A stretch of 64,000 nucleotides of DNA from a virus. The first letter of the stretch is position 1. Each line of letters opens with the position of its first letter. Both the position numbers and the translations under genes were made by a program. The notes under the pieces were generated by a model. The model ran no database searches. It saw only the letters and a program-made list of their open reading frames with translations, and had not been told where the DNA came from. Below are positions 57,358 through 58,949 of this stretch, in pieces. The DNA is taken from IMG/VR virus record IMGVR_UViG_3300023108_001314, positions 100,767 to 164,766 of that record; one strand, 5' to 3'.

Positions 57358-57581
57358 TTGAAGACGATGTACATGATCAATTGGTAAAAGAGTATTTGGC
57401 TTACTTTAAAGCCAATGAAATATTTTTACAAAGGCCATCTGAGGCAAAAAGACGAGTAGTTCGCAAACATTTAAGTCAAATTATGAAACTAGCAAAGGTA
57501 AGACGTTTAGAAATACAAGAAATACACCAACAGGCACTAAAAAAACATCCTCTATCCAAAACAAGAGAAGAAAGCACATAG
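57354..57581 (+). CDS. Small basic hypothetical protein after gp46
   Basis: 75 aa, not recognised. It is helical and basic (AKRRVVRKHLSQIMKLAKVR) without a cysteine. ATGA overlap with gp46 indicates translational coupling, so it may help gp46/gp47 or bind nucleic acid. I have an impression that similar small genes follow gp46 in cyanophages, but I cannot name a family. Confidence 0.65.
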   Translation: MIEDDVHDQLVKEYLAYFKANEIFLQRPSEAKRRVVRKHLSQIMKLAKVRRLEIQEIHQQALKKHPLSKTREEST

Positions 57582-57599
57582 GCACACATAAATTACTGT

Positions 57600-58034
57600 A
57601 TGAATTGGATATATCAAGGTAAAGAAGTAACAGAAATACCAAACGAGTACGAAGGGTTTGTTTACCTTATTACTAATTTAACGGACAATCGCAAATACGT
57701 AGGCAAAAAACTAGCAAAGTTTAAAACAACCAAACCACCGCTTAAAGGCAAAAAAAATAAAAGACGAGGCTACAAGGAATCAGATTGGCGAGACTATTGG
57801 GGATCGTCAGATAAACTAATAGCAGACGTAGAAAAATTAGGCGAAAACAAGTTTACAAGAGAAATACTTTATTTTTGTAAATCTAGAGGCGAAATGTCAT
57901 ATTTAGAGGCACGAGAACAATTTGAACGTAGAGTTTTAGAAACAGATGAATACTATAATGGTATTATAAACGTTCGAGTTGGTGGTTCAAAAATACTTAG
58001 AGAAAATTTAAAGGCACATCAGGACACTGTTTGA
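57600..58034 (+). CDS. GIY-YIG family endonuclease
   Basis: 144 aa. GFVYLITNLTDNRKYVGKKL at residues 19-38 is the GIY...YVG pair of the GIY-YIG nuclease fold. DWRDYWGSS near residue 60 and EAREQFERRVL near residue 105 offer the Arg and Glu that complete the active site. Homing endonucleases, Seg proteins and DNA repair nucleases share this fold. The gene lacks a clear ribosome site and lies 18 bases after the 75 aa gene. A structured non-coding segment follows directly after its stop, a setting that can point to a mobile intron or endonuclease cassette. Confidence 0.7.
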   Translation: MNWIYQGKEVTEIPNEYEGFVYLITNLTDNRKYVGKKLAKFKTTKPPLKGKKNKRRGYKESDWRDYWGSSDKLIADVEKLGENKFTREILYFCKSRGEMSYLEAREQFERRVLETDEYYNGIINVRVGGSKILRENLKAHQDTV

Positions 58035-58052
58035 TCGGAATTGTTCGATCCA

Positions 58053-58283
58053 CCTTGAGCTTCACGTAACCACGTGATCAGACACTGGTGAAGTCCCACA
58101 GGCTGTATGCTACGAAAACCCCTTAGCACTAGGAACGAAGCGGGGGATAGCGCATTTTGCGTGATGTCGACGTAGGTTGGGAAAGGTTAGAGCCCAGTAG
58201 CAAAGTCAAATACCTACTTCCAAGTCTCGGCTATGCAACTCACATGAAGCTCGAGGAGGATGGAACCGCTGCAAGGTTCCGTC
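58053..58283 (+). ncRNA. Highly structured RNA candidate
   Basis: The stretch of 58035-58430 has no gene; its first 250 bases are visibly richer in G and C than the flanks. Pairings found by eye are: a long-range closing stem 58053-58067 with 58242-58256 (14 of 15 positions pair); a 9-bp hairpin 58259-58267/58275-58283; 58108-58113 with 58197-58202 (6 bp); 58172-58177 with 58212-58217 (6 bp, crossing the last, so a pseudoknot); 58119-58122 with 58142-58145; 58150-58154 with 58158-58162; and 58078-58081 with 58093-58096. Three pairs are G-U and would become A-C on the other strand, which argues for a plus-strand RNA. Alternative local stems exist at 58063-58076 and at 58060-58065/58088-58093. 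I do not recognise the family. Group I intron, riboregulator and guide-type RNA are all possible. Confidence 0.6.
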
Positions 58284-58360
58284 TGACTAATTAATCTACA
58301 TGAAACTAAGTGCTTCGCACTAATAAAAAAACAAATATAGTTTGAGCGATAGCGAAAACT

Positions 58361-58381
58361 TATTGCTACGTAGTAGCAATA
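58361..58381 (+). repeat. Perfect 9-bp inverted repeat before the late promoter
   Basis: TATTGCTAC and GTAGCAATA flank a three-base GTA loop, 12 bases before the TATAAATA box. No T-run follows on the plus strand, so it does not fit an intrinsic terminator. A protein-binding site or RNA stabiliser is possible. A smaller 5-bp hairpin lies at 58309-58321. Confidence 0.5.
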
Positions 58382-58393
58382 CTAAATAATTCA

Positions 58394-58401
58394 TATAAAT
58401 A
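58394..58401 (+). promoter_or_regulatory. T4-type late promoter
   Basis: Exact TATAAATA, 29 bases before the ATG at 58431. It is the clearest late promoter on the plus strand. Confidence 0.75.
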
Positions 58402-58430
58402 AATATAACAACATCAAAAAGGATTGTCTT

Positions 58431-58949
58431 ATGAAAGTATTTGAGATTATTAGTGAAGATAACGTAAGTGAAAAACCAATGGGATTGCTAAAAAGAGCAG
58501 GACTTGGTGCTATGAGTAAATTAGGCAGTAAAACTGCAAAAGCAAAACTTGATGTAGGCAAAGATGCAAACCAAACCAAAAAAGATCTAAGTGTATGGAT
58601 GGCAGGTAGTGGCATTAAAAAAGGAAAACTAGAACCTGATCAACTCAAGGGTTTTCTAAGACAAAAAGGTTTACCTACTACTGATGTTGATATGATTTTA
58701 GGTAAGTCAAGAGAAGCAGGTGGTAGAGATGAAAATGAACCACTAAGCAATCCTGAAGTAGATGAGATTTTAAAGAAAGTAACACAGCAAGGCTTTCAAA
58801 GATCTGGTGCTGGTGATCCTAAGAAACGTAGTAAGTTTGCATCACCGGATGCTACACCACAGTGGGCAACATCAAGAATTTCACCTGAAGAAAAAACAGC
58901 AATTGCAATGCTTAAGAAAAAAGGCTACAAAGTTTCACAGCCTTCTTAA
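58431..58949 (+). CDS. Late protein with possible prohead-protease cleavage site
   Basis: 172 aa, not recognised. The N-terminus MKVFEIISED contains the sequence I-S-E, which fits the (L/I)-x-E pattern of the T4 prohead protease gp21. Many head-internal proteins of T4-like phages start this way. The rest is Lys- and Gly-rich with several short helices (LKGFLRQKGL, AMLKKKGYKV). Together with the strong late promoter upstream, this hints at a packaged internal or head protein, though a tail role is possible. It ends at 58949, directly next to the convergent gp51 stop at 58950. Confidence 0.65.
   Translation: MKVFEIISEDNVSEKPMGLLKRAGLGAMSKLGSKTAKAKLDVGKDANQTKKDLSVWMAGSGIKKGKLEPDQLKGFLRQKGLPTTDVDMILGKSREAGGRDENEPLSNPEVDEILKKVTQQGFQRSGAGDPKKRSKFASPDATPQWATSRISPEEKTAIAMLKKKGYKVSQPS

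What the first reader, a model, noticed from the sequence alone, without database searches (positions are those of the whole stretch)
58035..58300. Unidentified, GC-richer, pseudoknotted RNA candidate right after a GIY-YIG nuclease
Seen: a 15-position closing stem, six other stems, and a 9-bp terminal hairpin in about 230 bases that hold no gene. The pairs 58108-58113/58197-58202 and 58172-58177/58212-58217 cross, so the fold would be a pseudoknot. Three pairs are G-U only in plus-strand RNA (T58056-G58253, T58261-G58281, G58150-T58162). Inferred: a conserved phage ncRNA, perhaps an intron-like, riboregulatory or guide-type RNA linked with the nuclease. I could not match it to a family from memory.
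Basis: partly seen in the sequence, partly recalled or inferred. Interest (0 to 1): 0.85.

Follow-up and report, generated by a model that had tools for sequence, protein, structure and literature searches.

The report
Pseudoknotted phage RNA with twin heptamers
A single gene for a large, knotted, non-coding RNA sits beside a nuclease gene in many uncultured phages, and two seven-letter copies near its end nearly always change together, which hints at a pairing function that remains to be worked out.

Summary
The RNA is real. Its 15-position closing stem is peculiar to this phage. The RNA runs from about 58022 to 58304. It occurs once in each of 20 records known to carry it. A SegE-type GIY-YIG gene lies upstream in 97 of 104 RNA-anchored loci; elsewhere a PD-(D/E)XK gene replaces it, it lies downstream, or no nuclease was seen. 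Around the nuclease gene of ten isolate phages no such RNA was found. The window has no Rfam match. A second type carries the orphan Rfam RNA Polynucleobacter-1 (RF01718) as its 5' domain. New: a heptamer NNATNAN occurs twice, inside the RNA and at its 3' end. The copies are identical in 114 of 115 sequences of the window's type and 52 of 53 of the other, in 15 versions, with no complementary partner found nearby. I infer that the inner copy pairs with the DNA strand opposite its own gene's end. Function is untested.

The parts
57600..58034 (+). SegE-type GIY-YIG endonuclease gene (144 aa), directly upstream; its last codons overlap the RNA
   Evidence: Pfam PF19835, E 1.3e-34; same neighbour in 97 of 104 RNA-anchored loci
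58022..58304 (+). the RNA (conserved extent)
   Evidence: alignment to relatives; CM R1 match 58097-58305, 138.7 bits, window not in the seed
58022..58025 (+). P2 5' strand GGAC (partner 58093-58096 GTCC)
   Evidence: coordinates; GAAC/GTTC in L077, GGAT/ATCC in L237 (read by eye, not counted)
58033..58050 (+). hairpin GATCGGA/TTCGATC of the 5' domain
   Evidence: coordinates; kept with changes in relatives (by eye)
   Evidence: coordinates; local hairpin in relatives (by eye)
58101..58113 (+). P4 5' strands: outer GGCT 58101-58104, inner TGCTAC 58108-58113
   Evidence: inner four pairs 100% paired, each with change on both sides; outer four 84.2% paired; own -11.4 vs other combinations -6.9 kcal/mol
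58119..58145 (+). P5 hairpin CCCC-GC/GC-GGGG with conserved loop ACTAGGAACGAA (58128-58139)
   Evidence: 94.9% of cells paired, 7 of 7 pairs with change on both sides
58150..58162 (+). P6 hairpin, length-variable in relatives
   Evidence: 78.3% of cells paired, 4 of 4 pairs with change on both sides
58172..58177 (+). P7 5' strand GTAGGT (partner 58212-58217 ACCTAC), crosses P4
   Evidence: 99.7% paired; one of six pairs with change on both sides (U-A to C-G in 8 of 96 rows), three never vary; P7 was not part of the CM
58178..58196 (+). P8 hairpin TGGG/CCCA with conserved loop AAAGGTTAGAG
   Evidence: 99% paired, 2 of 4 pairs with change on both sides
58197..58207 (+). P4 3' strands: inner GTAGCA 58197-58202, outer AGTC 58204-58207
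58212..58217 (+). P7 3' strand ACCTAC
58226..58255 (+). P9 helix CTCG/CGAG holding the first repeat unit; weaker evidence
   Evidence: TCTTG/CAAGA in L083, GTCTT/AAGAC in L097, by eye; 74.1% paired with 1 of 4 pairs changed on both sides in the 17-sequence set
58242..58248 (+). inner heptamer ACATGAA (after ACTC)
   Evidence: identical to the 3' heptamer in 114 of 115 sequences
58259..58283 (+). P10 hairpin GATGGAACC/GGTTCCGTC between the two heptamers
   Evidence: 98.7% paired; pairs vary on one side only or not at all
58298..58304 (+). 3' heptamer ACATGAA (after ATCT), end of the conserved RNA

Best explanation
Shown: 58022-58304 is a gene for a large pseudoknotted RNA read from the plus strand, found once in each of 20 records that carry it. 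It is one branch of a modular RNA family of uncultured phages (T4-like gp46/gp47 genes in 8 of 8 records tested); another branch includes the Rfam orphan Polynucleobacter-1. Shown: its last third carries two similar units, each ending in ACTC or ATCT plus the same variable heptamer, with a hairpin between. Inferred mechanism: the core is a scaffold that presents the inner heptamer, which pairs with the DNA strand opposite the 3' heptamer at the end of its own gene. That strand is the only complement guaranteed to change together with the 3' copy, so each switch needs two changes rather than three. The RNA would thus recognise its own gene end and hold a short RNA-DNA hybrid there, as a primer or recombination-start RNA or as a guide. 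Which of these follows is not decided.
For: Conservation and fold. Twin heptamer: identical in 114 of 115 unique sequences of the window's type, each copy located separately by its flank (the patterns fixed heptamer positions 3, 4 and 6 and limited 1 and 2; random pairing of these counts would give about 55%, my arithmetic). In the other type a scan that puts no condition on the heptamer found 58 candidates, 56 of them behind the nuclease gene, 55 identical; as unique sequences 52 of 53, against 25% for random pairing. On a tree built without these columns the inner copy changes at least 10 times and the 3' copy 11 times. No reverse-complement heptamer recurs at a fixed place from 2.5 kb upstream to 1.5 kb downstream. 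No third RNA column follows the heptamer as closely (limits under evidence against). One copy in each of 20 records, which fits a resident gene.
Against: A seven-pair hybrid is weak. The flanks of the heptamers differ in a conserved way (CTC before the inner copy, TCT before the 3' copy), so pairing cannot extend. A trans partner is not excluded. In one search the best third column reached 0.32 of 1.00, 0.29 of 0.42, 0.37 of 0.94 and 0.45 of 0.84 bits for positions 1, 2, 5 and 7, so for positions 2 and 7 a weak cis partner is not ruled out. Heptamer copies with the CTC or TCT flank beyond the two in the RNA number 0 to 3 per record, no more than for foreign heptamers, so no further target site shows. 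The detrended GC-skew minimum lies 3.9-5.1 kb from the RNA in 7 of 8 records and 9.3 kb in the eighth (undetrended: in 5 of 8), but conserved gene order with gp47-gp46 explains that equally, and it is not at the RNA. No expression or binding data exist here. The link between the two RNA types rests on shared slot, shared 3' module and intermediates (L305, L306), not on one alignment of the core.
Confidence: 0.4

Rival explanations
1. Trans-acting RNA with two identical docking sites: both heptamers pair with the same sequence in a third RNA, of host or phage, so the RNA acts as a sponge, a clamp or a two-site regulator.
For: Two similar units, each after a helix (by eye); no cis partner found; variation of a partner would make both copies change alike.
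Against: Each of at least 10 switches would need three matched changes; no partner was identified.
Confidence: 0.3
2. Guide-type RNA of the neighbouring nuclease: the inner heptamer steers a GIY-YIG or PD-(D/E)XK enzyme to DNA and helps the cassette home, as in TnpB, IscB or bridge-RNA systems.
For: GIY-YIG gene upstream in 97 of 104 RNA-anchored loci and in 7 of 7 loci of the other type picked by the 3' module; PDDEXK_15 in the same slot in L255 and L222; RNA types exchanged in a syntenic slot, L303 vs L305 vs L306.
Against: Around the nuclease gene of 10 of 10 isolate phages no RNA was recognised (2-4 kb flanks); two unrelated nucleases would have to share one scaffold; L183/L191 show no nuclease in the genes scanned; one copy per record.
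Confidence: 0.12
3. Ribozyme or processing element: the core cuts or joins RNA at the two identical sites and frees or removes the P10 hairpin.
For: Large conserved core with a pseudoknot and conserved loops; the two sites have the same sequence.
Against: No complementary guide found in the RNA; no group I match; no split gene seen in the loci read.
Confidence: 0.1
4. 3' untranslated regulator of the gp47-gp46-nuclease operon (stability, termination), without trans activity.
For: The RNA follows the operon and overlaps the end of the nuclease gene; a hairpin with a CTTCG loop follows at 58309-58321.
Against: It lies ahead of the GIY-YIG gene in L182 and L220 and in another setting in L183; complexity and twin heptamer exceed what such a role needs.
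Confidence: 0.08

Closest known systems
Polynucleobacter-1 RNA (Rfam RF01718; PMC2864571)
   Same: RNAs that carry RF01718 lie in the same slot and have the same 3' module with twin heptamers: RF01718 above threshold in 8 of 14 sources, 15 of 18 records and 7 of 7 loci picked by the 3' module alone, all 7 with the GIY-YIG gene.
   Different: The Rfam model (141 positions) covers only the 5' domain of those RNAs. Window and L094 give no match even at E 5. The core differs. The main text of PMC2864571 names the motif once, in a table row; its supplements were not seen.
Group I introns with homing endonuclease genes (recalled)
   Same: Large RNA with two crossing helices, next to homing nucleases of different kinds.
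   Different: No Rfam match, no split gene seen, and only 9 bases (58203-58211) where P8 would be.
Omega RNAs of TnpB/IscB (HEARO) and IS110 bridge RNA (recalled)
   Same: Non-coding RNA next to a nuclease gene; in bridge RNA a loop matches the element's own end, as the twin heptamer would.
   Different: No TnpB, IscB or IS110 gene among the neighbours scanned; one copy per record; nuclease of other folds.
ColE1 RNA II (recalled)
   Same: A structured RNA in which an upstream loop and the segment near its end are both complementary to the same template strand.
   Different: No sequence relation shown; origin function untested.

Membership tests
Polynucleobacter-1 (RF01718) | Covariance model score at or above the 37-bit gathering threshold | tested here: not met
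   No RF01718 match in the window at gathering threshold, in 57900-58450 at E up to 5, or in G000 (whose 14 control genomes gave none either); met in relatives
Polynucleobacter-1 (RF01718) | Slot and 3' module of the RNAs that carry the model (not part of the Rfam model) | tested here: met
Group I intron (RF00028) | Match to the Rfam model | tested here: not met
   No match (window) or 42 (L094)
Group I intron (RF00028) | P8 hairpin between the 3' strands of the two crossing helices (feature recalled) | tested here: not met
   9 bases, 58203-58211 (coordinates)
Group I intron (RF00028) | Self-splicing between exons | not testable with these tools
   No split gene seen in the loci read
tmRNA | tRNA-like and tag domains | tested here: not met
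   ARAGORN 0 genes; no Rfam match
HEARO / omega RNA | Rfam match and an IscB or TnpB gene beside it | tested here: not met
   No Rfam match; nuclease neighbours are SegE_GIY-YIG or PDDEXK_15
IS110 bridge RNA | IS110-type recombinase gene beside the RNA | tested here: not met
   None among the 14 neighbouring proteins scanned with Pfam
ColE1 RNA II-like primer RNA | Replication starts at the RNA's 3' end | not testable with these tools
   GC skew is confounded with gene order

The most novel reading that the evidence does not exclude
A phage RNA that recognises DNA by identity with its own gene end: the inner heptamer is an evolving guide and the 3' heptamer its site, making this a new class of self-addressed, RNA-directed element, used to start replication or recombination or to direct a homing nuclease.
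Probability: 0.25. Interest if true: 0.93.

Novelty: new variant of a known kind. Interest (0 to 1): 0.72.

Why it matters
It joins an orphan Rfam family to a much larger RNA, shows that this RNA sits in phage genomes and in a nuclease slot, and adds a branch that Rfam 15 does not hold. The twin heptamer is an unusual kind of covariation, identity instead of complementarity, with no partner found in cis. It makes the function directly testable: change one copy, the other, or both. An RNA kept while its core is exchanged and its heptamer drifts should do something the phage needs.

Tried and rejected
Led nowhere: blastn of the window RNA and of L115 against INPHARED phages, no match; promoter scan, 6 found against 3.7 expected; a first own-against-foreign helix test with strands cut too short (P4 27 of 90, P7 3 of 23), P4 redone (66 of 90 in the best tenth), P7 not redone that way; GC skew; extra heptamer copies as targets. 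Weak model matches of L110, L150, L176, L085 and L087 (E 0.006-0.54) are not counted as members. Papers: the words Polynucleobacter-1 and RF01718 each found one paper of the held library, PMC2864571, of which I saw passages; PMC9004378 passages only; all others search listings. That the RNA of this window is undescribed rests on these searches and on Rfam 15 only. Statements on bridge RNA, omega RNA and ColE1 RNA II, and the names gp46 and gp47, are recalled.

Full report
What is there. The stretch behind the SegE-type GIY-YIG gene (PF19835) of a 164,766-base virus record is GC-richer than its surroundings and matches no Rfam family. Iterated profile search found the RNA in 84 of the first 98 loci and in 212 of 296 later. 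I call these types A (window-like, without the 5' domain) and B (with it); the type that this profile misses is C. Habitats of the samples were not looked up.

Fold. A covariance model from 17 type B relatives finds the window RNA at 58097-58305 with 138.7 bits. Over 97 sources chosen because they carry the RNA, 97 match at E 1e-16 or better. On that alignment 94.5% of cells pair against 77.1% in shuffles, the covariation score is 0.474 against 0.161, and 665 cells change on both sides against 197.5. The alignment is fitted to the nested helices, which favours them. P7, which crosses P4, was not in the model: it is paired in 99.7% of cells, with U-A to C-G in 8 of 96 rows and three pairs that never vary. 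An alignment-free test gives P4 own strands -11.4 kcal/mol against -6.9 for other combinations. So the pseudoknot is real. The window's 15-position closing stem is its own peculiarity, and fold energy alone would not have shown the RNA. Only 4 of 115 cores have any frame free of stops.

Setting. Counting only loci fetched through the RNA, 133 carry an RNA row, 104 have at least 600 bases upstream, and 97 of these have a GIY-YIG gene there on the same strand. The loci are not all independent; some contigs appear twice. The seven others: L255 and L222 have a PDDEXK_15 gene in the slot; L182 and L220 have the GIY-YIG gene downstream and L210 ends at the RNA; L183 and L191, nearly identical, show no nuclease among the genes scanned. 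In some loci another small gene stands between nuclease and RNA. The model finds one copy in each of 20 records chosen because they carry it; the records may be fragments. In ten isolate phages the 2-4 kb around the nuclease gene hold neither a convincing model match nor a twin heptamer.

Twin heptamer. The 3' third holds ACTC-NNATNAN, a hairpin, and ATCT-NNATNAN at the very end. In 115 unique type A/B sequences, each copy located by its own flank, 114 pairs are identical, in six versions. Five of 120 unique sequences had been left out because an anchor was missing (115 kept). The same arrangement, with other hairpins and heptamers, lies behind many further SegE-type genes (four control prefix pairs gave 13-20 hits in all loci). 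A scan of 75 such loci that puts no condition on the heptamer gave 58 candidates, 56 of them behind the nuclease gene: 55 identical, one (L167) one letter off; as unique sequences 52 of 53, in nine further versions. The two others (L102, L171) lie elsewhere in their loci. Seventeen loci gave no candidate; 7 of these show the identity-selected pattern. Random pairing would give 25%. On a tree of 97 type A/B rows without these columns the inner copy changes at least 10 times, the 3' copy 11 (95 rows scored). No fixed reverse complement lies nearby. Flanked extra copies in eight records are 0 to 3 and no commoner than for foreign heptamers.

Relation to what is known. Type C carries RF01718, Polynucleobacter-1, as 5' domain: 8 of 14 sources, some of them of other types, 15 of 18 records, and 7 of 7 loci picked by the 3' module alone. 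The window fails the RF01718 test. The link runs through the shared slot, the shared 3' module and intermediates: L305 and L306 have the type B 5' start but other cores, in the slot where L303 has type B (by eye), and L306 reaches E 0.0002 with the model. L307 and L308 have no recognisable RNA there. The type C core seems to have other pseudoknots (by eye, not tested).

How it may work. Identity with no partner in cis needs either a shared third strand or the complement that DNA itself supplies. The second needs two matched changes per switch, the first three, hence my choice of own-gene DNA as partner, at 0.4. The consequence, primer, recombination start or guide, is left open. The RNA lies about 4-5 kb from the detrended GC-skew minimum in 7 of 8 records, but so does the gp47-gp46 operon.

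Noticed in passing
window 57600-58034: Proteins of this SegE-type GIY-YIG family are labelled 'NAD synthetase' in PHROGs (phrog_447) and in a number of GenBank phage records, probably a propagated misannotation.
   Followed up: partly
window 58340-58380: Directly after the RNA lie two further hairpins, GTTTGAGCGATAGCGAAAAC and ATTGCTACGTAGTAGCAAT; similar elements follow the RNA in relatives (by eye). The GAGCG element occurs once in the window.
   Followed up: partly
L179, L180: Two contigs of a Neomarinimicrobiota MAG (335 kb and 153 kb) carry the GIY-YIG gene and the RNA, L180 also the large upstream genes: probably phage contigs binned with a bacterium.
   Followed up: no
L305:3240-3630: In a slot that elsewhere holds this RNA, a different stretch has the repeat GATCTAATG on both sides of the hairpin AACGCC/GGCGTT (by eye), perhaps another branch.
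   Followed up: no
L094:4012-4060 and L095: The 5' domain of these RNAs holds an insert resembling a tRNA T arm (GAGGGTTCGAATC in L094, by eye).
   Followed up: no
window about 57580-57585 and relatives: Gene ends in these phages often carry TAGGCA or AAGGCA overlapping or next to the stop codon; seen by eye, not counted.
   Followed up: no
window about 53500: GC skew changes sign, negative to the left and positive to the right; the detrended minimum lies near the start of the gp47-gp46 genes in the 8 records examined.
   Followed up: partly
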